The position numbers and the translations under genes are program-made. From positions 8,680,001 to 8,744,000 of the forward strand of contig NC_045132.1 in assembly GCF_007655135.1 (NCBI RefSeq): a stretch of 64,000 nt of DNA. The letters are read 5' to 3'. Origin of the DNA: Punica granatum. Lineage: Eukaryota; Streptophyta; Magnoliopsida; Myrtales; Lythraceae. Below, one piece after another: positions 5,809 through 51,305 of the stretch. The notes beneath the pieces are model-generated. The model saw nothing but the letters and a program-made list of their open reading frames with translations, made no database searches and was not told the DNA's origin. Numbering within the stretch: position 1 is the first letter of the stretch; each line of letters opens with the position of its first letter.

Positions 5809-5829
5809 TACTCCTTGAATCAATAACTG

Positions 5830-13560: not shown

Positions 13561-13569
13561 AAGGGGGAA

Positions 13570-17361: not shown

Positions 17362-17481
17362 TGTACAGACCCGAATGTGGACTCTTGTCGGGGCCCGCAT
17401 GAGCGCTTTTGGATTGCGTAGCTTGGGAGTGTTCACCTTCTCGGGGATGCGTGACGGACTTGCGTGAGAATGAGTCGCCAT

Positions 17482-17517
17482 TTATCATTTTACGACCCGA
17501 AGGTCGAGGGCCGATAA
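17482..17517 (-). other. Conserved two-stem hairpin, copy A
   Basis: Outer stem TTATC (17482-17486) with GATAA (17513-17517). Inner stem CGACC (17493-17497) with GGTCG (17502-17506) around a 4-nt loop. On the element's sense strand the loop is TTCG. About 120 bp from the LTR 3' end. Confidence 0.65.
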
Positions 17518-19925
17518 GTTATCCAGGTCTAGGGGTATGAAACACCTAGTTTTCCTAAGGCATTGGTCTGTGGAACTGGAAAGTCCGAGTTCGGGGGTTC
17601 ACCTTACGTGCTGGCCTATATCTCGCACGCCCTTTCGGTACTCTAGCTTGCTAGACTTGCATGTTTTAATTATTTACCATGTGAATTAAGTTGTGCTCGA
17701 CTCGCACGTTTTGACATCAGAAATTTGGTGAACTAAACGATGTCAGTTGAGTGGCCGAGAGAGAAGTAAGCCCGTATGTCGGGGAATCGGTTCACTATCT
17801 TGCGTTACAGTTCATCAAACTATGATGTTTTGAATTCCCGTGTGAACTAGAATCGCAAAATCTTGGGATTACTCTTGTCTAGGCAAGCATTGGACCGATT
17901 CGATTAATTCGACTCTCGGACCGTTCGCTCACTGATTGGGATTCTTACAGAATGAATGTATAAAATAAAATCTTTACAATGCTATCAAAATACAACAAAT
18001 TACAAATAGCAAATGATAGAATCCCAGTTAGTTCGCGTTCGGTTGTTATTTCGCTCCGACTCACCGTGAGTTCAGGGAAAAATCGAAAAAATTAAAATTC
18101 AACATGCACTCTCAGTGAATAGGGTGTTGGACCCTGTGATCGATGGTTAGGGCGTTGAACCCTAAGTGCAATGCGTCCTATGGGTCAGGCTCAACTCGCA
18201 TGAACAAACAAGAGCAAAAAAATAACAAACAACATGTAGATTGAAGACAATGTGTTTGTTATTGTCAAGTGTATGTGGATTAACAAGTTATTGACCCAGG
18301 TGTATTTTTGCAAGCAAATGCCATATGCTAAACAAGCAATCGTGCAAAACGTTTTTCATTCGGCTTTACTTTGAGAACTTGACAAATAGAGTCAAATGTT
18401 GTGTGTATGGATTGCTTTTACAGTTGTTCTGTATTGTGACACTGAAATTTCACTAAATTAGCCAAACTTGTGTTTTGACTCTAGATTTGGAACCTAGAGT
18501 TCCGCCTAACCATTATCTAGTATTTGGTTAGGTCGAGTGAAATGTTAATAAGCGTTTTGCATGTTTTGTGACAAAGATAATTGTTCTAGTTACCCGAGTC
18601 TACAATAAGATGACAAAAACTCATCAATGGATAAGAAAATGCTTTGCAAATGAACTTACACCTCAACATGTAGCTTATTCTTATCTTGATACCGTAGTGT
18701 TTCTGTTAAGCTAACCCTAGGGGTGTCGCTGAATTGTGAAAATGTGATTTTGCCCTTTATTTGAAATTTTTTTTCAAAAAAGGGAAACATCGCAGTGTGG
18801 GCCACCTTAGCCTGTAGCCGGTGTCGACCAACTCCCTGGATCGTCCAAGGTTGTGCAAGAACCCCGAAAAAACTAAAGAACCGATCGATCTAACCGGAAG
18901 TGATCTAGAAAGATCTTATGTATCCTGACCTGAGTTACCTAGTCCCTAGATGGCGGATGAGACTGTAAAAAATCGGGTCAGACCGTTGGTGGGTTGGGTT
19001 TTGGGCTGTTTTTCGTTGAACAGACCCGAAAGGCACAAACAGACCCGGTTGGAACACTGAATAGAGCCGACTGGCACAAGTAGGGTCAGACGTCACCGTA
19101 GAGGCTCCTGATGGAATTTTGAGGTAAGGTCAGCGGCCCTGGGTAGCCAAGGGACCCCTCTAGGTGACCGTGGTGGTCGTTTGCCCCCAGAGTTATTGGG
19201 TCGACCCGTATAGTCCTGCAAAAATCACGAAAAATAGAGTGTGTCTTGGAAACTGGCCCTACTGGGCAGTTTTCGGGTCGGAATTCACCATGGTGGATCC
19301 CGATGGAATTTTGATGCAAGGTCAACGGCTCCCAACTCCTAACTCACCTCCAGAGGTGACTGTGGTGGTCATTTTCCAAAAAGAATCTCGGATTGACCTG
19401 ATCTGCAAGAAAAGCGAAAGAACAGTCAGAAATTTCGACCCCACTGGGCAGTCGGGCTGTTTCTTCATGCTGAGCTAAAACCAACGGGTTTTTCTTGGAT
19501 TTATTGACTCCTTGACACCCTAGGGTTGTGTGGGGAGGTGTTTGTTGGGTTTTGACAACTCAGATCGACCCGAAAAGGCTTGAAACTCGGGTTGAAAATT
19601 TTGACCTGAGAAGAGCAAATCTCAGGTTCGGTTCTGTAGTGGCTGTTCCGATAGGTTAGAGGCTTCAAATTTAAAATCTAAGCTCGGAAATGGATAGAGG
19701 AGGTAAAAAACATATGAGATATGAAGTTTGGTGAATTTTGGATTTAAGCCGGGATGGTAAATACTATGATTTCGACTTAAGTTTTTGGTGTTCTTGCTTG
19801 GTTTTTGCTTGCTATTAATGGCTATAGTTTTGCTGTTTGCTTGAGGGAGCTTGAGAGCTTTTGAAGAGTGAGAAATGCTAGAGAGATGGCATCAAGTGAG
19901 TTGTGATTAAGTTAATGACATAAAT

Positions 19926-19937
19926 GATATATATAGG
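19926..19937 (-). promoter_or_regulatory. TATA-like box of giant LTR A
   Basis: On the minus strand CCTATATATATC. It lies about 1.6 kb inside the LTR start, the same place as in copies B and F and near the place in C. Confidence 0.45.
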
Positions 19938-21599
19938 TAAAGATTAAGTGCAATTAAGTGAGAAAAAGACTTGATTAATGGCATGGATTAGGGGGGATTC
20001 AAATTTTTAATGAAGATGGGGATGAAGACTTCTTGAAATGCATTAATGAAGAAGAGCCAAATGCATTGATGGTGAAGTGAAGTTGGAGTGTTGAAGTAAG
20101 ATTGTAGGCTTGATAATTTTGAAGAAGGATAAGGGCAAGTTGCATGGAGAGGAAGACAATGAGATGGGCGGCATTCATGAGGGTTACGGCTGGTCATGGA
20201 GGAGCCGTGGGCCCCACGGTCCTTGAGGGAAGTTTAGGACAAAGTTCGGGTTTCGATTGATCACGTGTTCGAGGTTCGTGGCTCAAACGAATATTGAATT
20301 GTCAATATGCGCGTAAAAGCGGTTCAAATAAGCCCGAAATCATCCCTTTTGCCCAAAAGAATAGTCGTGTGGTTTTTGGACTCGGAAGCCGGTTTTGCCT
20401 GTTTCAACCGATCAGAGCAAAATTAGCCGTTTCTGAATGCCTTTCTCATGTCTACATTCAGAATTGGTCGTTTTGACGGGCATTGTCAATCAGATTGAAT
20501 AATCGACCCTTAAGCCGGTACTGCAAATGTGAAGCCGGAGACATCCTAGGAGTCTGAAGCCGGATTTCTCAGAATGCTTTTTGAGTTGCTTGGATGATTC
20601 GAAGATCGCTGCGATCTCTGCTCGTTGAGAACGGACTTCGAAGGATTGAAAAAGTGCATCTGAAACCCTAAAAGCACTGTTTGAGAGCCTAGATGGGTTG
20701 TGAGATTCCGTTTGAGGATTTCACTTTGAGCGTTGGGATGAGTGGCACTAGATTGGCCAACCATCCGGCGTCATGTTTCCGTAAAAAGGACCTTCGGTTA
20801 TGAATTTCCATTGAAAACGGTATTTTCTTCCATTCGAAGGTCATTCGGGAAACTGAAAGGGATATTACAGTCTGATTTGCCTAATTGCGTCCGTCCGCTG
20901 TAGTTTTTGGGGCAATGCATTGCTAACTTGGATTGCCGATGTTTTGTCAAAGCAGTCTCCAGATATGATTTTCCGTTGAGGAGTATGCTTGTTATGCCGT
21001 TCGGGAGTCATTCGAGGTGTCTGCATGACTTCCGAAGAGCAATCTGAAGCAATGCTCATGTTCTGCATAATTATTGGATGTGGTTGTGTCTGACATTTGG
21101 CATTAACTTTTCTCTGAGAAACCGGCATTAACTTTTCTCTGTATACAAAAAGTTGTTCTCTATTGAGCAGATGATCTGCAAAATACGTTTGAAGACACTT
21201 TTCATATATTTGGCACTGATGTGGATTTTTGGAGTCCAATATTGGCTATCTTCTGATGGTCGAGTGAACTATCGGAAAATAGGACTATCCGTAGTGTATT
21301 TTGAAAATGCCGGTTTGGATACCGTCTGGGCTCCCTGCTTACTTTGTATGTTGCTGGATGATTCTGTATGTTTTTCTATCATGTGCTTGAATCATTTGCC
21401 TATCTCTGTTGACTTGAGAACGAATAACAATTTGCTACTCTGTCGAGCTTTCTTCTGCATGGATGCTCAAGTCGTAGTCTGAATTGCTATTGATAGGTAT
21501 CGCTTAAATTTGTGAGCCAAAATGGGATATTGACAGCAAGAGAAATGAACTTTTCACCGAAGATATTTCTGTGACAAACAAAAGAATTTTCCTATGAGT

Positions 21600-21690
21600 A
21601 CAGTTGTATTCTGGCATAGTAGAGATGCAGGCTCGATGACGGTCCACGAGAGGAATGTCCATTGCTTGAGGAACCTGCATCATCAAAATA
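21600..21690 (-). other. Possible terminal exon of unidentified minus-strand gene
   Basis: On the minus strand a pyrimidine/TGATGATGCAG acceptor-like junction precedes an open stretch reading SSSNGHSSRGPSSSLHLYYA in one frame, ending in a stop, or VPQAMDIPLVDRHRACISTM in another. It lies downstream of the exon-like segments at 22214-22871 on the same strand. Weak on its own. Confidence 0.2.
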
Positions 21691-22871: not shown

Positions 22872-22993
22872 CTGAATTGGGGAAATTACAGAAACTACAA
22901 TTGAGTAACTAAGAAAAAGAAGACATGATAAAGACAGTATATTAGATAATAAGAAAGACCGAATATTGGAAACTTCAATTATCATATTATAGC

Positions 22994-23547: not shown

Positions 23548-23555
23548 ATTATAGC

Positions 23556-24796: not shown

Positions 24797-25021
24797 TGTT
24801 AGAAAACGATACAAAAAATGTAGTGGAAGCGAAATAAATGATAAATTAAAATTTCATTTATTCATACAGGATCGACATCTGGAATCTTATTCCGAAGCGT
24901 GGTGTACAGACCCGAATGTGCCCTCGTCAGGGCCCGCATGCGCGAGACCAAATCGCGCGGCTTGGGAGTGTCCACCTTCCCGGGGGACGCGTGACGGACA
25001 CACGTGAAAATGAGTCACCAC

Positions 25022-25055
25022 TACCTGTTTAAGACCTGAAGGTCGAGGGCCGGTA
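25022..25055 (-). other. Conserved two-stem hairpin, copy B
   Basis: Outer stem TACC (25022-25025) with GGTA (25052-25055), extendable to six pairs with one bulge. Inner stem GACC (25033-25036) with GGTC (25041-25044). The outer base pair C-G of the inner stem is lost in this copy. Confidence 0.55.
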
Positions 25056-28000
25056 AGTTGCCCGGGTCTAGAGGTAAGGATACACCTAGTTTTGATAAGG
25101 TATTGGTCTGTATGGAACCGGAAAATCCGAGTTCGGGGGTTCACGTTATGTGTGGGCCTATATCCTACACGCCCTTTCAGTACTCTAGCTTGCCAAGCTT
25201 GCCATTTTATTTATTGGGTGAATTAGACTGTGCTCGACTTACACGTTTTTTACACTGAAAATTCGATGAACTAAACGATGCGGATTGAGAAGCCAAGAGA
25301 AAAGTAGGCCCATGTCGGGGAATCAATTTAGTATCCTCGCATTACAGTTCATCAAACCATAATGGTTGAATTCCTATGTGAACCGGAACCGGGAGATCTT
25401 AGGCTTACTCTCATCTGGGAAAGCATTGGACCAACTCGATTAATTCGGCTCTCGGACCTTTCACTCACAAACCGGGATTCTTACAGAAAATGAATATACA
25501 AAGTAAAGTCCTCGCAATGCTCTCAAAATAATACAATAAATTACAAATGCTTGAATCCCAGTCAGTTCGCGTTCGGTTATTATTCCGCTCTAACTCACCG
25601 TGAGTTTAAGGAACAACCGAAAACTGAAATTCAAAATGCGCTCTTAGTGAATGGGACGTTGTGATCGATGATCAGAGTGTTGGACCTGAGTGCAATGCAT
25701 CGTATGGGTCGGGCTCGACTCGCATGGACAAGCATGAGAAGAAAAGTAACAAACAACATGCAGATAACAGACAATGAGTTTGTTATTGCCAAGTTTACGT
25801 TGGTTAACAAGTAATTAACCGGGGTATTTTGGCATGCAGATGACCTATGCTAATCAAACAAACGCGTGCAAAACATTTTGCATTCGGCTTTATTTCGAGG
25901 ACCTAACAGACATGATGTCTGTAGTTAAGTCTCATGTGTGTGGATTGCTTTTAAAGTTGTTCTGTATTGTGACACTGCAATTTCACTGAATATGCCAAAC
26001 TCGTATTTTGACTCCAGATTTGGAACCTAGAGTTCCACCTAACAATTGTCTAATGTCTAGTAAGGTTGAGTGAAAGGTTAATTAGGATTTGCATATTTTG
26101 TGACAGAGATAACAGTTCTAGCTACCCGAATCTAAGATATGATGATAGAAACTCATCAGTTAGATAAGAAAAGGCTATGTAGATGAACCTGCACCTGAAC
26201 ATGTAGCCCATTCTTATCCTAATACCGTAGTGTTTCTGTCAAGCTAACCATAGGGGTGTCGCTAAATTATGAAAAGATGATTTTCCCTTGACTTGAAAAT
26301 GGTTTTCAAGAAAGGGAAACCACGGGATGCGGGCTACCTCGGCTTGTAGCTGGTATCGACCAATTCCTTGGATCTGCCAGGGTTATGCAAGAATCTCAAA
26401 AAAGTCAAAGAACCGGTCGATCTGCCCGGAAGTGATCTAGAAAAAACTTATGTATCCTGACCTAAATTACTTGAAATCATGTAGAAATTAAAGTCGAGAC
26501 ATATAAGTCCTTCCTAGACATCTGTGCTACATCGAACCACGCATCTCAGGTTTTAAAATAAACAAGTTTTGAAAAGGGCACTAATGTCATTTGATAACTT
26601 ATCGATGCGAATTATCAGTTAATGGCCAATTCATGCAAGAGTTATCAGTGTTAGGTGGGTTTAATCATGTGAGCGTTCCGACTAACCTATTTGTGGAATT
26701 ATTGTTTGTAAATTGTTACCGAATGCAGTAAATGTGCAAGTTATAGACAATCAGACAAATCATGAATTGATCCATTGAATGAAGTCTGAATACCCAAAAA
26801 GCTTAATTTAATGAAAACGATTTGTGACACGGTGACCAAGACGAGTCTGGGAAGGTCGAGGAAAATTTGGTCAAAATGACCAAAATACCCTCGGAACCCA
26901 AATGGACTCGGAAAAGTCACCGATACACGAATCCATGCATTTTGCTTGGAAAACAACATTTTAAAAGGGATTTTAATGCGGGATTTGCGATGATATTGAA
27001 ATTGCGATTGCATAAAATCCGAGAAATGGATTTCTTTGAGGTAAAGAGGTCGTTCTTGACCCGAATGAGGTCAAGGAGTTCTCGGCCCTTTCCTCTTGAG
27101 GATAGTCGTGAGCTCCCTTGACCCGTTTCAGGTTCAAGCGGTCTCTTTAACCCAATTTCGACTATTCCTCGCATACTCCAACATTAAACACTATAAATAA
27201 CATGGTTTTGCAAAGCCGGTAACGTCATAATCTTGAATAACACTTTTAAACATGCAAACATGCACAAACGTGTTATTTATGGAATCGATAAAATTATACC
27301 GACTTTATGGATGCGGGAAAAACATGGAAACTCGGGAAACAACTTAAATCGGGGCAAGGAAACCGGTTATAACCCGAAAAACCTAAAAAGGGCTCACGGT
27401 CATCTTTCCTCAAATGGAAACCGTGAGCTTCCTTGATCGTTCCGGTTTAAAACGGTCTCTCCGACTTTGATTTAAATATTTCCTGACATGCTAACACGTT
27501 AAACGATAATAAGTATGCATGATATAACGTAAAAATTGCATAAAAACTTAATCTTGCATGTAGAAATAACTTAAAACACCTTATAATTCCATAAACACAC
27601 CAAAATATAAAAGTTATAGTTCCTCTAAGTTGGGAATGGTTATACCTAGTCCGGGGATGCGGGAAGAGACTATAAAAAGTCGGGTTGGACCGTTGGTGGG
27701 TCAGGTTTGGGCTGTGCTTGAACAGACCCGACTAGAAGCAACAGACCCGATTGGGAGCTGTCTCGACCCGACTGGAGCACCCGAAAAGAACGATCCGGTT
27801 CAGGTCATTTCGGCTGGCTTCCGCGGCGATTCACGATGGTTCTGGACACCTAAGGGATCCCTTTAGGTGGTGGTGGTGGTCGTTTGGGTCCAATGGTCTC
27901 GGGTTGACCCGTATAGCCCTGCAAAGTTCGGACAAAAACGAGTAATCTCCAGAAATAGACCCGACTAGCAAGTCTCGGGTTGGACGTCACAACGGTGGCT

Positions 28001-28630
28001 CCCGATGGCTTTTGGCTGCAAGGTCGATGGTCCACGTTAGCTAAGGGACCCCTGGAGGTGAACGTGGTGGTCGTTTGAAGAAAAGGGTCTTGGGTCGACC
28101 TGATATGCAAGGAAAAAGCAAGGAAAGTCGAGAAATCCGACCCGACTGGGTAGTCGGGATGAGTCTTCTTGCTGGGTTAAATCCAACGAGTTTTTTTTAG
28201 ATCTCTCGACTCCTAGACACTCTTAGGTCATGTATGGAGGTGGTTGATGGGTTTTGGCAGCTCAAACCGACCCGTAAGGCCAGGAAACCCGGGTTGGAAA
28301 ATCTGACCTAAGAAGGACCAAACTCTGTTCAGTTATGTGCTAGGCTGGTTCTATGGTTTAGAAGCTTCAAACTAAAAATCTAACTTTGGAAATGGACTAA
28401 GGGAGTTGAAAACATGTGGGATATGAAGTTTGGTCAAGTTTGGATTTAAATCGGGGTGATGATCATCGTGTTTCGGACTTAAGTCTTGAGTGACTTTGCT
28501 TGGTTTTCTTCTTGTTGGAGCTTGTTGCGATTTTCTGAGGTGAAGTGGAGGTTGAGAGCATTTGTTTGAGTGAGAAATGCTAGAGAGATGATGCTAGGAG
28601 GTAAGTCATTGTCTTAATGACATTAATGCC

Positions 28631-28639
28631 ATATAAAGG
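28631..28639 (-). promoter_or_regulatory. TATA-like box of giant LTR B
   Basis: On the minus strand CCTTTATAT, about 1.60 kb from the LTR start once copy C is removed, matching copies A and F. Confidence 0.4.
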
Positions 28640-31550
28640 TAAAGTTTAAGTGCAATTAAGTGAAACAAGGCTTGACTAAGGGCATGCTTAGGCTTGGGCG
28701 GTTTGCTTAAGGAAAGAAGAAGATAAAGCTTCTTCAAATGCATTGATGAAAAATAGTTAAATGCATTGATGAAGGTGGAGTGTTGAAGCGAAATGGTAGG
28801 CTTGGTATTTTGAAGAAGATAATGCAAGTTGGCTTGATGAAGAAGAAGCCAATGAGGTGGCAGTTTGGGCAAGGGGCGGCTGCCTTAGGGCAGGTCGTGG
28901 GTCCCACGGGTCATGAGGGAAAGTCGGGATGAAGTTCGGGTCTCGATTGATCGCGTGTTCGAGGCTCTTGGCTCAAACGAACGTCGAATTGTCAATGTGC
29001 ACCCGAAAACGGTTCAAACGAGCCCAAGATTGCCCATTTTGCATAAAAAAATGTTCGGGTGGTTTTGGGGCTCAAATACCGGTTTTGCTCATTTCAGGCG
29101 ATCAGAGCAAAGTTAGCTAATTCTAAATGCGTATCTCGTGTCTGCATTCCGCGTTGGTCATTTTGACATGCATTATCAATCTGACTGAATAATTGACTAA
29201 TAAGCCGGTATTGCAAATGTGAAGCTGGAGACGTCCTAGGAGTCTGTAACCGAATTTCTCAGATTGCTTTCTGAGTTACTTGGCCGAGCCGAAGATCGCT
29301 GCGATCTCTGTTCGTTGAGAACAGACCTCGAAGGATTAAAAAAATGCATCTGAGATCATAAAAGCACTGTTCTGGAGGCCTAGATGAATTGTGCAGTTCA
29401 GTATGAGGATTTCACACTAAGCTTTGGGATGGCTAGCACTGTGTTGGGAAATAGTCCGGCGTCAAGTTTCTGCCAAAAGGACCTCCGGTTATGGATTTTC
29501 GTTGAAAACAGTCTTTTCTTATCCTCGAAGGTCACTCGAGAAACTGAAAGGGATTCTGCAGTCTAATTTGACCAATTGCATCTGTCCGCTGTAGTTTTTA
29601 GAGCAATGTATGACTAACTTCGTTTGCCGATGATTTGTCAGACCAGTCTACTGTTACGATTTTCCGTTGAAAGGTATGCTTCTTCTGTCACTTGGGAGTC
29701 ATTTGAGGAGTCTGTGTGACTTTCGAAAAGCAATCTGAAGCGATGCTCATGAGCTATCGAATTGCAAGATATGACTCTGTCTGACATCGGGCATTAGCTT
29801 TTGTATGATGAACCAACGTTTTTGGACATCCATTGAAAAGTTGTCTGTATTCAGAAAATTGCTCTATATAAAGCAGATGATCTGTGAAATGTGTTTGAAG
29901 ACACTTTTCATTTGTTTGGCATTGCGAGGGATTTTTGAAGCTTAATATTGACTATCTTTTGATGGTCGAGTGGACTAGTAGAAAATAGTACTTTCAGCGT
30001 TGTATTTTGAAAATGCCGGTTTGGAAGTTTTCTGGGCTTTCTGTTTGCTCTGTATATCACTAGATGATTCTAGAAGTTATTTTGTTGTATGTGTCAGCAC
30101 CCCATTTTGGTCCATCGGCTCCCGACACAAGGACTCCCGGCCGAAACTCGGGTCACTATTCATAATCGGGAAACCGGAGGCGAACGTGCGAGCACAGAGC
30201 CATGATTAACAAGAGAAAAGCAGGGTCCACTAGAAGAGCACCAGAGGGCAATCGGAAGAGTAAACAGACGACAAGCCCCGAAGCAACAGGAGCTGGCACA
30301 GTGGCACTATTCATCGCTAGGTCACCGAAGCGTCAGAAGGTATCCAATGTGGGACTCTAAAAATCCCTCTTGGTGCCAAAATGACCAACGGCACATCCGA
30401 GCGCGTTTCGGAGGCATCCTGCTTAAGCCGGGGCACCCCCCGAACTCTCACAGACGCCTTTTCTGACAGGGCTCCTGGGGGCCCAATCCAAGGACAAGTA
30501 AACGGCACCCGGAAGTGGGCATGCACCCACCCAAGGACCACCTGGACCTTGGAACAGGTTTCAGATTGCCCTTTAGAACTCGACTTGGTCTCCCGAGTGG
30601 ACCCCGACCTGGAAAAAAGGCCCCATTTCAAACGGGATCTAGCGCTTAGAGCTCATTCGGTGGAAAGTTGGCGTCCGAGTTTCGCACCCCTCACTCCCTA
30701 CAACTCCTAGGACTGGGGAAATCATTTTGCCTCGGGCCAAACAAGTCAGTTAGGTCTCCCGAGTAACATTTCAGTGGTCGCAAACGCCTCTCGGCAAGTC
30801 TTCGGGGTTTGTTTCTGACAGACGGAAACCACAGCGGTCTTCAAACACCTCAAGGCATTCGGGAAACACTGAGGAAGCCTCGATCGCGGATCCCTAGGTC
30901 ACCTCCGGCCAATGATCTTCGGTCGAGGATGGCGATCCAACGATTCCACATGGGATAAAAAGCTCGCCGGGACGATCATTACAACGCACAAAGGAGCAAT
31001 TGGAGAACGAGGACGGTCAACCCCACTCTGGATGTCTAAATGGGAAAAAGCCGGCTCTCTAGGTGCCAAGTCGCCCGGAGATTCGTTTATATGAAGTATG
31101 ACGATATTGGGCTCATTTAAATCCCCTTCATGCAAGCATTCCAAATTCATCAATTAATCGGACCTCGGAAGGCACCGTATAACCAATCGAGCCTCGAGCT
31201 TCTCCCGGCTTCTCTCCTAATCGAATGGGACCCACAGCTTAGCCAAGCCAAGCCTCCAAGCCACGACTCAAACCCACAGCCACTGCTCGAACCCAAGCCA
31301 CGGCCCAACCGCCCCAAGCCACGGCTAAATCCCCCAAGGCCGGCGGCTCCAACCCCTCTCCTCTTCCCTCCACCACACAATTCAAATATCTTCTTACACA
31401 CACTCACATCCATCACCTCCCATCAACTTTCCCTAACTTCCCCTACACTCAACATGACCCTTTCCCCATCCTAATCTCCCTCAAGATTCGGCAGCCACCT
31501 TAAGCCCCTCTAAGCCACACTTAACTTCACTTAATCACACCATTAGTCAT

Positions 31551-31559
31551 CCCTATAAG
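31551..31559 (+). promoter_or_regulatory. TATA-like box of giant LTR C
   Basis: CCCTATAAG 1.46 kb from the LTR start, followed by CT-rich sequence. Position is equivalent to the boxes in A, B and F. Confidence 0.45.
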
Positions 31560-34500: not shown

Positions 34501-34983
34501 AATTATTCGAGTGTACATTGTGAGGATCTTAATTGTACATCTATTCATTCATTTGTAAGGATCCCCGATCGGCAAGCGAGAGGTCCGAGTGTTGAACCGG
34601 TCAAGTTGGTCTATTAATGCCTAGAGACGAGTAAGCCCGAATACTCGCGGTTTCGGTTCACGCAGGGAGTCGACCGTCGTAGTTTGACAAACTGTAAACG
34701 TTAGGATAGTGAACCGATTCCTCGACGCACGAGCCTACTCATCTTTTGGGTTCTTGGCCCAACTTGATCAATTCATCGATTTTACGGTGTCAAAACGGGC
34801 GAGTCAAGTGCAACCCTAAATCACGCGGTAAATAAACAAAACGACAAGCTAGCAAACTAGAGTACCGAAAGGGCATGCGGGATATAGGCCCGCACGTAAT
34901 AGAACCCTTGAATTCGGAATTTCCGGTTCCGTACGACCATTGCCTTAGTATTTAGGTGTACCTCGTACCCCTAGACCCGGGCG

Positions 34984-35021
34984 ACTCACGGCCCTCGACC
35001 CATGGGTCGTAAACAATGAGT
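34984..35021 (+). other. Conserved two-stem hairpin, copy C
   Basis: Outer stem ACTCA (34984-34988) with TGAGT (35017-35021). Inner stem CGACC (34996-35000) with GGTCG (35005-35009), loop CATG, so the inner hairpin is a 14-bp perfect palindrome in this copy. About 120 bp from the LTR end. Confidence 0.65.
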
Positions 35022-37337
35022 GGCAACTCCTTCTCACGTGCGTCCGTCGCGCGTCCCCGGGAAGGTGGATACTCCCAAGCCGCGTTGCATAGGCTTCGCG
35101 CATGCGTGCCCTGACGAGATTAAATTCGGGTGCGCACAGTATGCTTGAATCATCTGTTTGTCTCTGTTGACTTGAGGGTGAGTAACAATTCACTGTTCTG
35201 TCGAGTCTTCTTCTGTATTAATGCTCAAGTCATGGGCTGAATAGCCGTTGATGCGCACTGCTTGAACCGGTGGATCAAAATGGAGTGCTGACACGTGGTA
35301 TCACTTTGCCACGATTAAATAATGCTAACATAATGTTAGCTCATTCGCAAAATCCCCGCAAGACTGCAAGCAATTGCCTTCTTGAATAATCGCTTGAAGC
35401 TACTCAAGTGTTCGGCCTCTAGCTCGTCCACACGAACGTGTCTTCACCAAGGTTGCTCCTCCTCGACTTGAACTAGCCTGGACGAGTCGCCTACACGATC
35501 GGACTACGCTCTTAAGAAAAGGTGGAACGAGCAATGAACTCCATGTGCAACAAGCGGTCGAGGGAAGAACGAATTTCCTCCTATTAGCCTCGAGCATAGG
35601 TGTGACGTAGGCTGCCCTTTCTCAGCCGTGTGCATTCCTTCACTATTTTCTCTCTTGGCTGTCAAACTCATTCACTGATTCGGCTATGCACAACATATAT
35701 ATAACACATATCTATATATGATTATATATATATATATATATATGCTTGCCTATTAGTCCTTAGGGTTATTTAGCAATTATAATTAATTCACAATTAATAA
35801 TAATTCGCAAATAAGTCCTAATGACTTGAGTAGTTTCTAAAACCACTCGTGGATTATCTTATAACTCACACTAGTCCCAAAAACGAAAAACCGTAATGCA
35901 CTTACTAATATATATAGATGTTATATATATATATATATATATAGCTAATTTCCATTTAAGGACATTATTATATCGAATATAAATAATTCCTTAAACAAGT
36001 TCACTTCAATATTGGATTTGACTTCGGGATGTGCTAGCACTCCTGCAATCACATTGCAAGTCTAATTAATTGATTACTAATTAATTGCCTTAATTAAAAT
36101 GAATTAGCTCTTGGCTCAAACATGTTCTGTTGTGTGTGAATAACTAGGTTCATCACTAAGTGATGATGAGACTATAACGTCAACCACCTTAGCATTATGG
36201 GAAACTCCTTTTCCCAACAAAAAACACAATTATCAAATTGCCTTTGTCCAAAGATCATGAGTAAAGCCTAGCAGCATATCATGATTGTCAGCACCGCATT
36301 TTGGTCCACCGGCTCTAGGATAAGACATTAGCAAGGCTCCCGACTAGGATTCCATAACTCTAACAAAAAATGGCGAGGGCAACATATGGAATTTTGTGGC
36401 ATACACAATTGATCCCGAAGAGTGAGACACGAATTATCAACATTCAAACCGAAGGTAGTGGACAAAGAGGAACTCACATCTCTATATCGTATTCTTCGGT
36501 GAGTACGACTACCTTCATGGATCCCAGAGCCAATTTCGGTATTTTTAGATCAAGATTTGGTGAGTTGAGGACATTTCAACACAAAAATCACATTGAGAGC
36601 CCATTTGAGCAAAGAGACAAAATTCGTGGGAGCTGGGGTGCCCAAACAGTGAAGACAACAGCTCGTGCATGAGATTCGACGCATCATATCATGATCAATA
36701 TTGAATCAAAAAGAACCTAGGAAATCAAGTTAGGTTCGATTTGACAGGTCGCTCATCCCAAGATTCAACATGAAGAAAGAGTTACGAATTTTTGAGCGCA
36801 CCATGCAAGAAACTGTTAAACTAGGACAGATTCTGCCAATCAAGGGAGAAAATCCATAAAAATTCAATTCTTCGTATTTCAAGCACAGCCATTGTCATTG
36901 GATTCCCAATTCACTGAAGATTCAGAAAAAAAAAGGAGATATTTTTTGCTAGATTAGTACAGAATTGAATATTTTCTCACGAATCAGAACTAAATCTCCC
37001 AGTTCTGGCCAGCTGTTGAAGAAAATTTTTTTGGGTATTTCTTGAAGTCGAACGATCTTCAAACTTTACAAGGATGTGCCTAACTCGTGTAGGGATCAAG
37101 GAAAAATATCAGAAATATCCACAGGTTCATGAGCATATCAGAAAAATTTCGGATGGACTGCTGGTCACAGCCCTGCACTTCCTTCTCCTTGTCTTGCTCG
37201 GCTAAAGATCTGACTGTACGGACCCGAATGTGGACTCTCGTCGGGGCCTGCATTGCGCTCTTTTGGATCGCGCGGCTTGGGAGTGTCCACCTTCCCGTGG
37301 GGACGCGTGACGGACACGCGTGAGAGAAGGAGTCGCC

Positions 37338-37377
37338 ACTTATCATTTTACGACCCGTAGGTCGAGGGCGGATAAGT
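37338..37377 (-). other. Conserved two-stem hairpin, copy F
   Basis: Outer stem ACTTATC (37338-37344) with GATAAGT (37371-37377), seven perfect pairs. Inner stem CGACC (37351-37355) with GGTCG (37360-37364). The best-paired copy. A second hairpin follows towards the LTR end (ACGCGTG and CACGCGT around a 5-nt loop, about 37303-37322). Confidence 0.7.
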
Positions 37378-37975
37378 TACCCGGGTCTAGGGGTATGGGA
37401 CACCTAGTTTATCGTTAAGGCATCGATCTGTGCGGAACTGGAAAATCCGTGTTCGGGGGTTCATGTTACGTGCGGGCCTATATCCCGCACGCCCTTTCGG
37501 TACTCTGATTTGCTAGGCTTGCATTTTATTTTATTTACCGCATGAATTAGGGTGCACTCAACTCACACGTTTTGACACCGTAAAATCGGTGAATTAAACG
37601 ATGTCAATTGAGAAACCGAGAGAAAAGTAAGCCTGTATGTCGGGGAATGGGTTCACTATCTTCGTTACAGTTCATCGAACCATAACAGTTGACTCCCTGC
37701 GTGAACCGAAACCACGAACTTTGAGGTTTACTTTCTTATGAGCAAACGTTGAATCGATTTCGATTAATTCTACTCTCGAACCGTTCGCTCACTGAATGTG
37801 ATTCTTACAATAACAAATGTACAAATAACTCCTTACAATGTGCTCTCAGAATAAATACAATAAATTACAAATGATTAAATCCCATTCGGTTCGCTTTCGG
37901 TTAATATTCCTCTGGACTCACCGTGAGTTTAGGAAATAACCGAAAAGTGCAATTCAGTGGGCTCTCAGTGAATGG

Positions 37976-38046
37976 GGGATTGAACCCCGTGAGTGATGAT
38001 TAGGGCATTGAACCCTGTGATCGATTATTAGGGCGTTGAACCCTAA
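37976..38046 (-). repeat. LTR minisatellite, copy F (3 units)
   Basis: Three units of about 28-30 bp built on the words ATTGAACCC and TTAGGGC. The homologous place in A (18118-18165) holds two, in C (34115-34170) two variants, in E (44545-44635) three to four of a derived unit. Confidence 0.7.
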
Positions 38047-40100
38047 TATTGTTCGGCCTAAGGATCAAACTCGACCCTCATGGCAAACAGGTGCAGAAAG
38101 ATAACAAGCAACCGGTAAATAACAGACAATGTGTTTGTATTCACCGAATGTACGTGGATTAGTAAGTTTATTAACCCAGGGGTATTTTTGCAAGCAAATG
38201 CCATATGCTAAGCAAAGAATCATGCAGAACCTTTTGCATTCGGCTTTGTTTTGAAAACTTGACAAAGAGAGTCAACTCTCGTGTGTGTGGATTGCTTTTA
38301 TAGTGATTCGGTGTTATGACACTGAATTACCACTGAATTGATCCAAACTTGTATTTTGACTCTAGATTTGGAACCTAGAGTTCCGCCTAACCATTTTCTA
38401 ACATTTGGTTAAGTCGAATGAAGTGATAAGTCAGGTAATTGTAAATTTGATACAGAATACCCAACTGACATTTAAAACGATGCTAAGATGACGGCAAAAC
38501 ACAAAATGATGCTCTTACAATTGATTTGAAAATTTGTTTTTTCATAAAATGAGAACAACACAATATAGATTTGAAAGTATGAGGGTTTTGAAAAGGGCGT
38601 TAACACTGTTTTGTGATTTGTCGACGCGAGTTACAAATTAATGTCCAATTCGTGCAAAGTTGTTTAAATTGAATGAATTAACCGTGTGAGCGTCCTGATT
38701 AACCCGTTCATGGAATTAATGCTTAAGGTTATTGCCGAATGCATTAATTATGAAAACGATTCATGATTCGACGACCAAAACGAATCCATAATGATCAAGG
38801 ATAATTCGGTTAAATAACCGACAATACCCTTATAACCAAATGGATCCGAATGAGTCCTCGATACACAAACCCATGCATGTTTGTTTTAAAAAAGGTTTTA
38901 AACGATGTTTTAACATGGGACTCGTGAAGATATCTAATTTACAACTTCACACAATCTGAGAAAACAAACTAAAATCGAGATAAGGAAACCATTCTTGATC
39001 CGAGAAAAGCCAAGAGGCTCTCGGCCTCATCTCTCAAAGATGGCCAAAAACTCTTATGACTTGATTCGAGTCACGAGTGGTTTCCTTGCCTTGGTTTTAA
39101 TTGTTTTTTGCATGCTCAAACATCAAACACGATGAATAACACGTTTTTTGACAAAAGCCGGTATTACCATGATTTGATTAACTCATTTAAACATGCAAAC
39201 ATTTACAAACATGTTATTTGAGGAATCGATAAAATAATACCGGCTTCATGCATGCAAGAACAACAAAATAAACTCGGAAACTAACTTGGATCGGGCTAAG
39301 GAGACCAATCTTAACCCGAAAAGAGCAACTTAAGTCTCGGCCATCTCATTTAGAGACTTGGCCGAGAGCTTGCTTGCCATTTCCGGGTCGGGATGGTCTT
39401 CCGGACGACGATCCAAACCATTTTCCGACATGCTAGCAAGTTATAAGGTAGTAAACATGCATAACATGACATGAAAGTGTATAAAAATTAAGTCTTGCAA
39501 ATCATACATGCATAAAACACCATAATACTCCATAGCCATGCAAATAACGTAAAAGGTTCTAACTTCTCTAAGTCGAGAATGTTATATCTTGCCTCGGGAT
39601 ACGAGGAAAGAGTCGGGGAAGTGTTCGAGAGCCGGGTGACTCGGTTGAACGCTTGGAAGAGTGCTCGGGTGCAAGGGCATGCACGTTCGGGGAGCTAGGC
39701 GCACGGGCGTGCGGCTGGAGTGCACGGGAGGCGCGCGGGTGCGCACTGTTCACTCGAGAGTGACAATTCTTCACCCGAAATGCACTAAATGGCCTGAAAC
39801 AATAATTTAAAGACTTCAAATGGAAAAACCAACTTCACCAATGAACTCCATGGGTCCAAAATGAGTGGGATATGGAGTTTGAGAATTTTTGAAGTTAGTT
39901 GGGATGATGAACATCAACTTCCGACTTAAGAACTCAAGGCTCTCTTTGGATTTTTCGGTTTTCTTCTCTATTCTTTCTAAGTGCTGAAACTTGCTGGTTC
40001 TTGAGTGTTCTTGGCTATGGAGTTTGAGAGCTTTTCTTGAGGGAGAAAGCTTGGAGAGAGTGTGCAAGAGGAGAAGTGATTATCTTAATCACTTTTGGGC

Positions 40101-40110
40101 AATTTATAGG
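40101..40110 (-). promoter_or_regulatory. TATA-like box of giant LTR F
   Basis: On the minus strand CCTATAAATT, about 1.59 kb from the LTR start. Confidence 0.45.
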
Positions 40111-42889
40111 CAAAGCTAATGACACAATTAGTGAAACACAGCATCATTAGTGGGCATGCTTAGGAGGGGTGGTTTGCTTAGGGAAATATCTAGCCATATC
40201 CTCTTCCATTTGCATTAATGAAGAAGATATCAAAGCATTAAATGGCATTGAAGAAGAGTTGGAGTGTTGTCTTCAAACTCTTTGGATATTTTTGGCTAAG
40301 AGTGAGCAAGAGTGGAAGAGGATAAGGCTTGGCAAATTTCGGCCATTCTTAGGCAAACCGTGGGATCCTACGACCGAAGAGGAAAAATCGGGAGAAAGCT
40401 CGGGTCTCGATTGGTCGCGTATTCGAAGTTCGTGGTTTGAATTGAACATTGAATTGTGGATATACGAGAGAAAACGGATTTAATGAGCTCAAGATTGGCA
40501 ATTTTCGTGGAAAATTGCCAAATGTCTGTATGAGGCTCGGAAGCCGGTTTTGCTCATTTTAAGCATTCAGAGTGAGGTTGCCCACTTCTGACAGCATATT
40601 TTGCATCTGCATCCCACGTCGGTCATTTTGACATAAATTGTGAAATTACGTGGGCACTTGACCCTTAAACCGGTAATGCAAATATGGAGCCGGAGATGTC
40701 CTAGGAGGCCAAAACTGGATTTCTCAGATTGCTTTCTGAGTTGCTTGGGCTATCCGGAGATCACTGCGATCTCTGTTTATCGAGATTGGGCCTTTAAGGA
40801 CATGAAAAATGCATCTGAGACCCTTAAAGCACTGCTCGGGGGGTCTAGATGAGTTGTGTGATTCATTCCGACGATTTCACATTGAGCGTTGCGATAAGCG
40901 GCACTGGAATTGCCAACCATCCGGCGTCAAGTTTCCCCAAAGAGAACCTCCGGATATGAATTTCCACTGAAAATGGTCTTTTGTGCTCCTCGGAGGTTAC
41001 TCGGGAAACTGAGAAGGGTTTTGCTGTCTGTTTTGCCCAATTGCGAATGTCCGCTGGAGTTTTCAGGGCAATGTAGTGTGAACTTCGTTTGCCGTAATTC
41101 CGTCAGATCAGTCTCCGGTTATGCTCTTTCGAAGAGGGGTATGCCCGTTTTGTCGCTCGGAAGTCATTCAAAGTGTTGTATGGCTTCCAAAAGACAATCT
41201 GAAGCACTGCTCGTGCTCTGTATGATTGTGGGGCATGGCCGCATCTGATATTTGGAATTAACTTTTCTCCGAAAAATCAACATTTTTGGACTTCCACTGA
41301 AAAGTTGTCTGTATACAGAAAGTTGTTCTGTATAGAGCAGATGATTTGCGAAATGCGTTTGAAAACACTTTTCATCTGTTTGGCATCGATGTGGATTTTT
41401 GAAGTCCAATATTGGCTATCTTCCGACGGACGAGCGAACTATCGGAAAATAGGATTGTCCATGTAATACATTGGAAATGCCGGTTTTGGACATTGTTGAG
41501 CTCTCTAATCACTCTATTACCCTTTGGTGTTCCCCGGAGTCCTTCTGTCACATGTGCATGTCTTCTGCTCAATTTTGCCGACTTGAGGATGAATAGTGAT
41601 TTCTGCTCTGTTAAGTCGTTTTTCTGTATTTTGCTCAAGTTGTGGCTTGGATCATTGCTGATAATGTAATTTGAATTGGTGAGCCAAAATGGGGTGCTGA
41701 CACTGACCAACTCTTTTCTTTTTCTTTTTCTATTCCTTTTCCTCTGCACCCGAACCTACAAGCTCTGTTATCCCTTACCCTATGCTCTTTTGTATTCTCC
41801 GATATTTTTCCTTTCTTTTTCTTTACTTGGTCAAAATAGAACAAAGTGACAGACACCTCCCCCTCTTGGCTTTAAGTCACGCTCAGCAGCCATCACCATC
41901 ACCTCCTATGGTTCTTCTTCTTCCTCACGTCAAGAAAAATGGACAAAGAGCAGCAGAAACGGGAAGCTTTTCCTCACCTTAGTTGAAATTCTTGAGGCTT
42001 TTTGGGGAAAAAAAAGGGGGCAGAACAACAGAAGAGAGAAACAAAAGGGAAAAGAAAAGAAGAGGGCTCAGTGGAATTCTCACTCCTCATCTCCTCAATT
42101 CACTCTGATTAGAACCAAGAAAGAGGGAACATAATAGACAGAAGAGAAGGGAAGAGAAAACAGAAAAGAACAATAGGAAATGGACGAAATAGAAACAGAA
42201 AGAGGAAATGAGACTCTCCCTCAGCTCGGGGACCCTTAGCCCATTCGTTCTCAACGTCTCCCCCAGCTCATTGTCTTTTTTTTCCCATAGCTCACGACCA
42301 GACACCCCTAAGCTCGAACCTTTCCTTCACCTCACAGCTCGACACCATTCAGCTGGAAGCTCTCCCTCAGCTCATGCCATTCCCTTGCAAGAACACCTTA
42401 TGCTTCTTCCTTGATCCCTCCAATGCATTGGGATCATCAGCGTGGCCCCCATGCCCTGTCGATCATCACGGTGGCAACACTTCCCCGTCTCCCTCAGCTC
42501 GAAGACAAACTCCAAGCTAAGCCTTCAACTGCTTTGTTATTTCCCCCCTCTCTTTCCCTCAAATATTTTTTTTCTTTATTCTTTTCTTTTTTATTTTGTT
42601 CTGATGTGTCACGTCGCTTTTCTTTGGTTCACACAGCCCTTTCTTTTCCAACGTAGTCCGTTGGAGCTCTGATGAAGCTCTGGACAGCCTTGGGTTCGAG
42701 GGATTATCGAAGTCTCATGAGCTTCCCTCGACGCTAGCTCGAAAAAGGTGTAAATCTCAATTTAGTGGTGGCATGTGTAGGGTCTCATTTTCATATATTA
42801 ATGTTTGATTTAATGGTGATAACGTGAAATGAACATTTGTGAACCATGTCGATGAACGAGATTATTCTAAATCCGATTTTATAAATTTT

Positions 42890-43480
42890 TCTAACTGTTT
42901 CAGTTCAGTCCCTGCCGCTATTTTCATTTTTTTCGTTCGGCCCTAAACTTTCAAATTTGTTTCAATCAAGTCCTGGGCCATTTTCAGCATTTTCAACTCA
43001 GCCATCGAACTTTTCAGGCAATGCAAGTAAGTCCAGAGAACTTTTTAACTATTTTAGTTCAGTCCCTATAGCTATTTTCATTCTTTTCGATCTGCCCTTG
43101 AACTTCTAAATATGTTTCAATCAAGTCCTGGGCCATTTTCATTATTTTTCACTCAGTCACTGAACTTTCCAGACAATTCAGATAAGTCCAGAGAACTTTT
43201 TAATCTGTTTTGGTTCGGTCCCTGCAACGTTTTCCACTTTTTCATATCAGTCCTAAACTTTCAGATTTGTTTCGATTAAGTCCTGGGCCATTTTCAGTAT
43301 TTTCAGCTCAACCACTGACTTTATTGATAAATCCATATTAGTCCCTAGTCAAATTTGACATTTTCAAAGTAGTCCCTGACCTTTTAAACTGCTCCAAATC
43401 AGTTCCTTAAGTTTTAGTCAAATTTTCAAGTCAACCCCAGTTCTTTTGAAATTATTCAATTCAATCCTTGGACAGTTTCG
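42890..43480. repeat. 155-bp tandem repeat in LTR E
   Basis: The phrase TTCAATCAAGTCCTGGGCCA begins at 42961 and 43116, and with two substitutions at 43271: an exact 155-bp period. Each unit is itself made of shorter related phrases of the pattern 'CAGTCCCTGAACTTT'. Degenerate remnants continue to about 43480. The type of repeat recalls the GTCCCTGA repeats seen in Mutator-like termini, but no link is shown. Confidence 0.9.
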
Positions 43481-44550
43481 TTTAGAAAATATAATAATAA
43501 TAAGGACTTCCAACCCGTCCTATTTGAGTCCCCGATCGACGATATGCATGTTCTTTTAATACATTTTTGTCAGGCTCATTATGCGTATGTGGCATCGCTA
43601 TGTGTGTTCATGTTATTTTCCGCTTCCATGAGTCGGCGTTGTTTTATCGATTCCATTAAAATATTGTGCTTCTACATGCTTGCGTGTTTACATGCGTTTC
43701 TTGTGATCATGGCGGTGTCAGCTTCGTAGAATACGTGTTATGATCGTGGTTGATATATGATTGCATGCAATCGTATTATTCATTTAATATTGATCGAGTG
43801 ATAGATTGTAAGTCAAACGTCAGTTTTAAATAATGTGCATGTATTTGTGTATCAACAACCACCTCGGGCCCACGAGGGTCCAAGAGTGCATCGGCCATCA
43901 CTGACTGGGCATTCTCGGCCTTCGGGGACCTACCTTGGTCTTTGTGTCACAAATTGCTTCATAAACCCATAGTACCCAAGGTGTAAGACAATAATCACTA
44001 AAAGAATTTCACATACGGGAAAGGGACATGTAACTTGGCTAAATAAATCACTCGGCCTTAAACAAAGTGCATGAATTGACAAATTACCATTAATCGCATT
44101 GATAGAATGGGTTCTTCTGTCAGAAAATACAGAATTCAACTAATTGTGCACTCGACCTAATCAAACACGGTAAATAGGCAAAAAGTGATAGGTTTTGGAT
44201 TTTCAGGTGAAAACACATGCTCTTGGCATAATCTGTAAAAGTCGCATTGTCACCGTACAAAATAATCTAAAACAAACCCACACATACTAAGTTGACCTAG
44301 CACCGCACCCGCCCATGTTTTGTTTAGGTTAGGAAAGTGCTTGCCAAATGATCCCGATATGTAATTGGTTAATCACGTAAACTTGGTGCTTAATACACAA
44401 TCTGATTATAGTCTTCTGTTTTTATCTTCTTTTGTCCGTTTTTTTGCCTATTTTCGTCCGTTTTTGTCTGTTTTTATCTGTTTTCGTCTGTTTTATCGCG
44501 GTTCGAGCCCTAACCCATAGGATACGATGCACATGGGGTCCAATGCCCCT

Positions 44551-44635
44551 CACCGTCTATCATGGGTCCAACACCTCTCACCGTCTATCATGGGTGCAAT
44601 ACCTCTCACCGTCTATCACGGGTCCAACGCCCATT
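44551..44635. repeat. 28-bp tandem repeat in LTR E
   Basis: CACCGTCTATC occurs at 44551, 44579 and 44607, a 28-bp period, each followed by a variant of GGGTCCAACACCTCT. Confidence 0.9.
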
Positions 44636-45276
44636 CACACCGAGTGCGCGCAACCCGAGTGCAGAATCGGGTCTTGCCTTGACTTACCGCTTCGCTCCTA
44701 GTAGTGTCTATGTGGAAGACGACTCGGATTGGGGGGGTAAGTTGTGGCCGAACATGACCTAGGAGCTCGACCAATCCCACGGTTATCAAGAGAGCCAAAC
44801 GACTCTTCTGTTATCCGACAGTTCGGTTGGACCCGACCCCCGGCTCTCTGAGCCCGCGTTGCCTTAATTTTAATTTCGGTAATTTAAAATCACGAGGTGA
44901 GCACTAGTGGAATATTTGGCCTAATGCAAATTGACCAGGTCCATGTATTGTATCGCGTCTATATTTTGTATTTACTTGAGAGTACATTGTAAGGATGTCT
45001 TTCTGTATTTATATTTAATCGTTGTAAGGACTTTGGTCGGTGAGCAAACGGTCTAAGTGTTTCATCGAAGTTACGATGTCAAAACGGGTGAGGAATGTGT
45101 AACATAATTCACACAGTAAATGAAATAAAACGGCAAACCCTAGACAAACATAGTACCGAAAGGGCGTGCGGGATATAGGCCTGCACGTAACAGAACCCCC
45201 GAATCTGAAATTTTCGGTTTCGCAAGACCAATGCCTTAGCAACTAGGTGTACCCCGTACCCTTAGGCCTGAGTAAC

Positions 45277-45312
45277 TTGCCGGCCCTCGATCTTTCGATC
45301 GTAAAATGGCAA
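45277..45312 (+). other. Conserved two-stem hairpin, copy E
   Basis: Outer stem TTGCC (45277-45281) with GGCAA (45308-45312). Inner stem CGATC (45288-45292) with GATCG (45297-45301), loop TTTC. Both stems differ in sequence from copies A, C and F yet stay fully paired. Confidence 0.65.
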
Positions 45313-46310
45313 CTGGCGACTCCTTCTCACGCGTGTCCATCACGCATCCCCACGAAAATGTGGACACTCTCAAGCCGTGTGATAGCGCACTCATGTGGGC
45401 TCCAACGAGACAAAATTCGGGTCCGCACAATGATAATCCAAATAGTGAATATGCGATTAGGACATGCTAATGAACATGTGACCATGTATACCATGCACTC
45501 GAGTCCCTTCATTACAGATTCCAATCTAGTTAGGATCATGGTTGATGACAAACTCTAGAGCCGATCATATAGAACCACTGAGCTTTTATTCATATATCAA
45601 TATAACTTAAACTAGAAATTCTTTTCTATTTAAGTCCATCCTCCTTGGTCAAGGATTTCCTAATCAAGAATAGAACTCAAACCTCTAGGATCTGTCCCTG
45701 TTTACTTTGATCAATTAATCTCATCTCAACTGGACATTTACCTCCATACACAACTAACTAGGACCACTGTCTGCCAGATACCCACGCTTAGCACAAGTAT
45801 ATAAGCAGGAGCAAATCCTAATTACCCATGTATGAGATAACCGTGTTATCTTAGGTCTAAGGGCTATATGCGCTAATACAATCTAGATAATATTCATTGA
45901 CAACAACAAAACATCAGGTGAATATTATATGCGCGTCACAGTTCGACTCACTTATCTCTACAAGTGTCCACATATTTGTCTCTATATAAGATATTGAATA
46001 GTATGAGACTCACTACTCCATCTTTATTAGTGTCTTATACTAATCATAGATAAAAATAGAGATGACGGTCTATCCGAAATGATAGCCCTTAGCTAAGATT
46101 CCTACGACCACGAACAATTTAAAGAAACCCGTATCAAAATGCTCTATCACTCGTATACTCTACTCTTGGAGAATGAAGCATCTGCTAAGTATCTTATGGA
46201 CTTTCTCCATTAAACATAAACGATTTACGAATAATAGAATAGATAAATATCATTGCCATAAATAAGAATTATCCAAATGCATACATCGGCTTTAGGGCAT
46301 ATAACTAACA

Positions 46311-51260: not shown

Positions 51261-51305
<45 letters not shown>

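What the first reader, a model, noticed from the sequence alone, without database searches (positions are those of the whole stretch)
17362..45429. Two-stem hairpin kept by compensatory changes near the 3' end of all five giant LTR copies
Seen directly: each copy has an outer stem, an asymmetric internal loop (GGCCCT or GCCCT on one side, TAAA(A/C) on the other), and an inner stem with a 4-nt loop. Inner stems: CGACC/GGTCG in A (17493-17506), C (34996-35009) and F (37351-37364); CGATC/GATCG in E (45288-45301); GACC/GGTC in B (25033-25044). Outer stems: TTATC/GATAA in A, TACC/GGTA in B, ACTCA/TGAGT in C, TTGCC/GGCAA in E, ACTTATC/GATAAGT in F. Sequence differs but pairing persists, which is the mark of a selected RNA (or cruciform) structure in elements with no proteins. 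A further hairpin towards the LTR end (stem ACGCGTG/CACGCGT, loop TCCGT) is well paired in F and mostly in B, C and E. If transcription starts at the TATA-like box, the structure would sit near the R/U5 end, where packaging, dimerisation or 3'-end signals act. That role is inference.
Basis: partly seen in the sequence, partly recalled or inferred. Interest (0 to 1): 0.85.

Follow-up and report, generated by a model that had tools for sequence, protein, structure and literature searches.

The report
Covarying U5 hairpin of Ogre retrotransposons
The five long repeats are leftovers of giant plant jumping genes called Ogre, and the hairpin is a real, pairing-conserved structure just upstream of where their copying into DNA starts, beside a second copy of the primer landing site.

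Summary
The hairpin is real and at the stated places. All five window copies are solo LTRs (4.2-5.3 kb) with 5-bp target duplications. ORFs behind such junctions include a plant-mobile-domain ORF, gag, and RT-RNaseH-second RNaseH-integrase: the Ogre lineage of Ty3/gypsy. "No proteins" only means solo LTRs.

Outer-stem covariation holds in 74 independent copies chosen by primer site alone (one pair E=0.00035; 6 compensatory events, null mean 0.36, 0 of 200 as high). A pairing-blind pattern matches 3,754 places; of the 100 listed, 96 keep both tested pairs standard; the two crossed combinations occur 6 and 0 times genome-wide. The inner stem does not covary significantly. A second hairpin has one covarying pair.

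New here: TGGCGACTC(C), the first 9-10 nt of the primer site, recurs in U5 directly after the hairpin (exact 9-mer in 62 of 74), and U5 is predicted to pair with the true site. I read the block as a structured 5' leader for priming and/or packaging (inferred). Strand-specific (G.U) evidence for RNA was absent; a DNA role is not excluded.

The parts
17362..21535 (-). Solo LTR A (element sense is the minus strand); duplication AAGAG at 17357-17361 and 21538-21542 (2 extra bases at the right end)
24903..30091 (-). Solo LTR B, first piece (carries the U5 end); duplication CGTGG 24898-24902 and 35294-35298
35144..35293 (-). Solo LTR B, second piece (LTR 5' end), beyond the nested copy C
30092..35138 (+). 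Solo LTR C nested in B; duplication GTATG
36286..45429 (+). Solo LTR E, interrupted by F; duplication ATGAT
37215..41702 (-). Solo LTR F nested in E; duplication CTGAC
17480..17519 (-). Two-stem hairpin, copy A
   Evidence: covariation
25020..25058 (-). Two-stem hairpin, copy B (one-base bulge in outer stem)
34984..35021 (+). Two-stem hairpin, copy C (outer stem ACTCA/TGAGT)
45275..45314 (+). Two-stem hairpin, copy E (outer TTGCC/GGCAA, inner CGATC/GATCG)
37338..37377 (-). Two-stem hairpin, copy F
17472..17480 (-). Second copy of the primer-site core in U5, TGGCGACTC, copy A
25012..25020 (-). Second copy of the primer-site core, TGGTGACTC (1 change), copy B
35021..35029 (+). Second copy of the primer-site core, TGGCAACTC (1 change), copy C
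45314..45322 (+). Second copy of the primer-site core, TGGCGACTC, copy E
37330..37338 (-). Second copy of the primer-site core, TGGCGACTC, copy F
37303..37321 (-). Second hairpin H2, ACGCGTG/CACGCGT (F). Others: A 17447-17465, B 24987-25005, C 35036-35054, E 45329-45347
37275..37294 (-). U5 strand predicted to pair with the true primer site, GAAGGTGGACACTCCCAAGC (F). Others: A 17421-17440, B 24960-24979, C 35061-35080, E 45356-45375
37470..37490 (-). Hairpin with the TATA-like ATATAG in its loop (F). Others: A 17608-17628, B 25150-25170, C 34875-34895, E 45166-45186
37530..37535 (-). AATAAA (F). Others: B 25210-25215, C 34831-34836, E 45124-45129; none found in the last 330 nt of A

Best explanation
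The hairpin belongs to a conserved structured block, about the last 300 bp of the LTR (U5 and perhaps part of R), of Ogre-lineage Ty3/gypsy retrotransposons. In the genomic RNA it would lie in the 5' leader, with its 3' edge about 120 nt before the tRNA-Arg(ACG) primer site. Shown: conserved pairing of the outer stem; a 9-10 nt second copy of the primer-site core directly after the hairpin; the true primer site at the LTR end. Predicted: pairing of U5 with the true site (CCAAGC/GCUUGG, GUGGA/UCCAC). Inferred mechanism: the two hairpins flank and expose the U5 copy so that it can take up the CCA end of tRNA-Arg (or mark the leader for gag), while the true site stays paired with U5 until gag anneals the tRNA; the same block may also serve packaging. 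Selection acted while lineages replicated; the window copies are later fossils.
For: Covariation in copies chosen without regard to U5; pairing-blind genome pattern: 96 of 100 listed places (of 3,754 matches) keep both pairs standard, crossed combinations 6 and 0. The primer site is the exact complement of the last 15 nt plus CCA of tRNA-Arg(ACG) genes of the same genome, 5 of 6 fetched loci being such genes. Exact primer site 1,425 times, reversed control 0. U5 copy TGGCGACTC exact in 62 of 74; best match starts 109-131 nt upstream of the site; chance of a given 9-mer in that 215-nt stretch 8e-4. U5 copy less paired than average (mean unpaired 0.52; leader 0.39; primer site 0.22; 31 of the 40 sites fetched by then), U5:PBS helix mean probability 0.84 (25 of these). 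Mean column conservation 0.81-0.93 over the last 300 nt against 0.56-0.87 further upstream in 29 copies. Twenty-five duplication letters without mismatch against roughly 20-33% difference between copies in the longer alignments put most changes before insertion.
Against: No RNA data. G.U/A.C cells: outer 8/19, inner 21/20, H2 41/49 in 87 copies, no sign of sense-strand RNA. Consensus folding of 64 distinct rows returned no sense structure, probably because bulged subfamilies fall out of register. Covariation over all column pairs is not significant. H2 event excess is absent in the independent set. In whole-leader folds the two-stem hairpin's closing pairs have mean probability 0.60 (27 copies) and U5-copy openness varies (0.05-0.65). 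Priming and packaging were not tested.
Confidence: 0.5

Rival explanations
1. Packaging or dimerisation signal in the leader: the hairpins are bound by gag, and the primer-site copy is incidental or a gag contact.
For: Same place and covariation. A gag domain was recognised in an ORF behind one junction. A paper's title says that the primer site is critical for packaging in mouse mammary tumour virus (PMC8096270, listing only).
Against: Does not explain a 9-10 nt match to the primer site at a nearly fixed distance.
Confidence: 0.22
2. DNA-level dyad: the inverted repeats are binding sites for host or element proteins, or form a cruciform.
For: Pairing cannot tell RNA from DNA symmetry; no G.U excess. 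Palindromic repeats in Sirevirus LTRs were read as transcriptional signals (PMC2829016, passages).
Against: Outer-stem letters change while pairing persists, unlike a fixed binding site; the position in U5 next to the primer site favours the leader.
Confidence: 0.18
3. Signal for 3'-end formation or transcription in R/U5.
For: AATAAA occurs somewhere in the last 900 nt of 20 of 29 copies, and 25 hits fall 300-319 nt upstream of the LTR end; the ATATAG-loop hairpin follows.
Against: The two-stem hairpin lies about 150 nt downstream of AATAAA, beyond the usual reach of such signals (recalled).
Confidence: 0.06
4. No function: shared ancestry makes paired variants look compensatory.
For: There are few subfamilies; over all column pairs no stem pair is significant (best stem pair E 3.5), so support rests on testing only the proposed pairs.
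Against: Tree-based null for the proposed pairs (0 of 200), repeated without window copies; the intermediate class AC/GT is also paired; crossed classes almost absent.
Confidence: 0.04

Closest known systems
Ogre lineage of Ty3/gypsy Tat retrotransposons
   Same: tRNA-Arg primer site, plant-mobile-domain ORF, second RNase H between RNase H and integrase, very long LTRs (PMC6317226, PMC9289625, passages)
   Different: I know no account of a covarying U5 hairpin or a primer-site copy in U5; the paper searches listed none by title or abstract start
Retroviral U5 leader structures and primer activation signal
   Same: U5 strand pairing next to the primer site; a stem between LTR and adjacent sequence (U5-IR loop named in PMC3601003, passages)
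   Different: Here U5 carries a same-sense copy of the primer-site core, not a complement of another tRNA part (the nature of the activation signal is recalled)
Ty1/Ty3 bipartite primer-binding site
   Same: More than one site for the primer tRNA on the genomic RNA (PMC5371799, passages)
   Different: In Ty3 the second part lies at the 3' end of the RNA (a cited title says 5'-3' bipartite) and pairs other tRNA parts (recalled); here the second site repeats the same tRNA 3' end within U5
Conserved motifs of Sirevirus LTRs and primer junction
   Same: Plant LTR elements with conserved palindromes and a conserved LTR/primer-site junction (PMC2829016, passages)
   Different: Ty1/copia, tRNA-Met; no covarying U5 hairpin in the passages seen

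Membership tests
Ogre lineage (Ty3/gypsy, Tat) | Primer site complementary to tRNA-Arg | tested here: met
   Exact complement of the 3' end of tRNA-Arg(ACG) genes of this genome; 10 of 51 LTR copies adjoin it or a near variant
Ogre lineage (Ty3/gypsy, Tat) | Extra ORF with plant mobile domain upstream of gag (57% of Ogre elements, PMC6317226) | tested here: met
   L088:4654-6153 and L091:5023-6318, DUF7745 and PMD above cut-off; in L091 it precedes the gag ORF. Two of the six ORFs scanned; the ORF behind the PMD ORF in L088 was not scanned
Ogre lineage (Ty3/gypsy, Tat) | Second RNase H between RNase H and integrase | tested here: met
   L089:217-3399: RT 179-339, RNaseH 428-532, RVT_3 587-705, rve 870-967
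Ogre lineage (Ty3/gypsy, Tat) | Long LTRs, TG..CA ends, short target duplications | tested here: met
   4.2-5.3 kb, 5-bp duplications flush in 4 of 5, displaced by 2 nt in A
Ogre lineage (Ty3/gypsy, Tat) | Place of RT in a phylogeny; intron between gag and pol; both LTRs of one element | not tested
   No tree built; splicing and 3' LTRs not examined
Bipartite primer-binding site (Ty1/Ty3 type) | Second segment pairs with another part of the primer tRNA | tested here: not met
   The U5 segment repeats the first 9-10 nt of the same primer site; other segments were not sought systematically
Described RNA family | Match in Rfam 15 | tested here: not met
   No match at gathering score in the window
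Functional leader RNA | Effect on tRNA annealing, packaging or cDNA start | not testable with these tools
   Needs bench work

The most novel reading that the evidence does not exclude
Ogre elements carry a duplicated primer system: a structurally presented tRNA-Arg capture site in U5, flanked by two conserved hairpins, plus the true primer site held closed by a U5 strand; the tRNA is captured upstream and handed over. This would be a new form of two-site priming, distinct from the Ty1/Ty3 bipartite site and the retroviral activation signal.
Probability: 0.25. Interest if true: 0.75.

Novelty: new variant of a known kind. Interest (0 to 1): 0.52.

Why it matters
Cis-acting RNA signals of plant LTR retrotransposons are, as far as I know, little charted, although such elements fill many plant genomes. 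A covarying leader structure with a second primer-site core gives a precise, testable target for how giant plant elements choose and load their tRNA primer, and a structural handle for annotating Ogre LTR ends, also in solo LTRs.

Tried and rejected
My first idea, from recalled plant sequences, was that the LTR runs the other way (note); the primer-site junction refuted it. RNAalifold on all 432 columns of the five copies gave an unfavourable covariation term (+3.08). Column shuffles on five copies (60 per window) gave the hairpin window z -3.8 in element sense and -2.9 in antisense, but several other windows scored as low or lower (down to -6.8), so this alone proves nothing. The G.U/A.C test was uninformative. 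Consensus folding of 64 distinct PBS-set rows failed. Searches for relatives outside the genome found none: plasmids, viral contigs with three patterns; 44 bacterial contigs with the 16-nt primer motif gave no blastn match to the window. Rfam at gathering score and the tRNA scan of the window were empty. Covariation over all column pairs was not significant. Dropped rows: L045 and L048 (duplicates), L050 (start not recognised) and 6 partial hits before the 51-copy set; 6 of 80 primer-site loci too short; 4 of the first 40 too short. Copies L046-L072 are biased towards A (best matches to A). The primer-site set is not, but it is 80 of the 100 places listed out of 1,425, all on C1 between 7.9 and 24.8 Mb, picked by hand, with most sites of one tandem array left out.
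Full report
What was claimed.

The observation. All five hairpins are present at the coordinates given. On the five-copy alignment 96.6% of 58 cells pair, against 17-38% when the partners are slid; four pairs change on both sides. The 40-nt hairpin is more stable than dinucleotide shuffles on average (mean z -2.71 in 76 copies; both stems in the best fold of 61 of 76); in 71-nt windows only F stands out.

What the copies are. Self-comparison and end inspection give five units with TG..CA ends and 5-bp target duplications: A, B, C (nested in B), E, and F (nested in E). Four duplications are flush, A's is displaced by two bases. None has an internal region, so they are solo LTRs. The window lies in a 320-Mb assembly with eight large contigs; the sizes resemble pomegranate (recalled, not tested). 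A 201-bp query from A gave 2,574 first-look candidates, 40 of them scored.

Orientation and family. In 10 of 51 aligned copies the end near the hairpin is followed by GCT and TGGCGACTCC(A/G)CTGGGG or a near variant. This 18-nt primer site is the exact complement of the last 15 nt plus CCA of tRNA-Arg(ACG); of six genomic matches to the tRNA end, five are tRNA-Arg(ACG) genes. The exact site occurs 1,425 times, reversed control 0. ORFs behind three such junctions carry DUF7745/plant mobile domain (two of three), gag with G-patch (one), and RT, RNaseH, RVT_3 and integrase (two; in L089 in one frame, in L074 in two ORFs). I scanned six ORFs and did not check 3' LTRs. With the tRNA-Arg site this matches Ogre as described in PMC6317226 and PMC9289625 (passages).

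Covariation. To avoid circularity I took 80 copies of the exact primer site on one chromosome, regardless of U5; 74 were long enough, none from the window. A home-made R-scape-like test (G statistic with product correction; column changes redistributed on a FastTree tree built without the hairpin columns), limited to the 19 pairs of the three proposed stems, gives in this set one outer pair at E=0.00035 and 6 compensatory branch events against a null mean of 0.36 (maximum 3, 0 of 200 as high). With all 125 copies two outer pairs pass (0.0013, 0.0136; 9 events, null mean 0.58, 0 of 200); without the five window copies likewise (0.0015, 0.021; 7 events, null mean 0.28, 0 of 200). H2 has one pair at E about 0.014-0.016 in all three sets; its events are 4 (2 of 200 nulls as high), 3 (4 of 200) and 1 (47 of 200, independent set). 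The inner stem has no significant pair; events 3 (6 of 200), 2 (27 of 200) and 2 (7 of 200). Over all column pairs no stem pair is significant, so the result rests on testing the proposed stems. A genome pattern that fixes the outer-stem frame but allows all 16 combinations at two adjacent pairs matches 3,754 places (reversed control 1). Of the 100 listed, all on C1, 90 have both pairs Watson-Crick (GC/GC 49, AT/AT 35, AC/GT 6), 6 more use one G.U, 4 are non-standard. Genome-wide the crossed classes number 6 and 0; the genome-wide counts of the matched classes did not complete.

When selection acted. The duplications show no mismatch in 25 letters, which limits post-insertion divergence between the two sides to about 11% (95% limit, my arithmetic), while copies differ by roughly 20-33% in the longer alignments. 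Most differences, the compensatory ones probably included, arose in replicating lineages.

The surrounding block. Mean column conservation is 0.81-0.93 over the last 300 nt, against 0.56-0.87 further upstream (29 copies); AATAAA occurs in 20 of 29, with 25 hits in the 300-319-nt bin. The TATA-like ATATAG lies in the loop of a further hairpin, with C-G to T-A at one pair in 5 of 29 copies. Directly after the two-stem hairpin U5 repeats the first 9-10 nt of the primer site: TGGCGACTC exact in 62 of 74, best matches starting 109-131 nt upstream; chance of that 9-mer in 215 nt is 8e-4. In 35 copies this 9-mer ranks 32nd of 265 nine-mers by conservation, and the first 17 ranks overlap the primer site or its junction. 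The consensus fold of ten leaders with a primer site pairs the true site with U5 (CCAAGC/GCUUGG and GUGGA/UCCAC); single folds vary. In 31 leaders the true site is mostly paired (0.22 unpaired), the U5 copy more open (0.52) than average (0.39), and the two-stem hairpin's closing pairs have mean probability 0.60, median 0.90.

Mechanism. I favour a structured leader acting in priming, with the U5 copy as a tRNA capture or marking site and the U5 strand as a lock on the true site; packaging is a close rival and may overlap. Shown: pairing conservation of the outer stem, primer-site copy, junction, family. Predicted only: the U5:PBS helix and accessibility. Inferred: every biochemical step. RNA against DNA symmetry is open because wobble pairs show no sense-strand bias.

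Known or new. Structured U5 leaders and two-part primer sites are a known kind in retroviruses and yeast elements (PMC3601003, PMC5371799, passages). I found no description of this hairpin or of a primer-site copy in the U5 of Ogre; the searches cover open-licence papers only and were seen as listings, six papers as passages. Relatives in other plants could not be searched.

Noticed in passing
L086 about 9453, L083 about 7864, L061 about 201: Three LTR copies appear inserted in or beside the short U5 stretch with the primer-site copy: of 41 flanks tested 14 match family LTRs, two of them 89 and 116 nt from the host LTR's 3' end, and a third flank reads GGAGTCACCAC. A possible insertion hotspot near the hairpins; small numbers.
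   Followed up: partly
L176 (G000:C5:27757175-27757285): An inverted junction: a primer-site-like stretch, then the complement of another whose tRNA match runs on into the T-arm sequence GGTTCGATCC, as if the tRNA primer had been copied past the usual stop.
   Followed up: no
L086 5163, L066 199 and window C: Three copies are inserted at nearly the same LTR position (4,019-4,027 nt from the LTR 3' end of the best-matching reference); shared duplication or target preference.
   Followed up: no
G000:C1:22813506-22835517: Eight primer sites follow one another here at steps of about 1.87, 3.15, 5.03 and 6.31 kb, the 1.87-kb step recurring, suggesting a tandem array derived from the element.
   Followed up: no
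window 12000-16000: Open pieces that look like RT and RNase H of another gypsy-type element, to judge by eye.
   Followed up: no
window 51265-52086: ORF that looks like a WrbA-type flavodoxin gene by eye; a host gene near the nested LTR cluster.
   Followed up: no
L089 about 4700-6044: Low-complexity ORFs of repeated units (such as GLGPTED, GRSNDGTRP) downstream of the integrase ORF.
   Followed up: no
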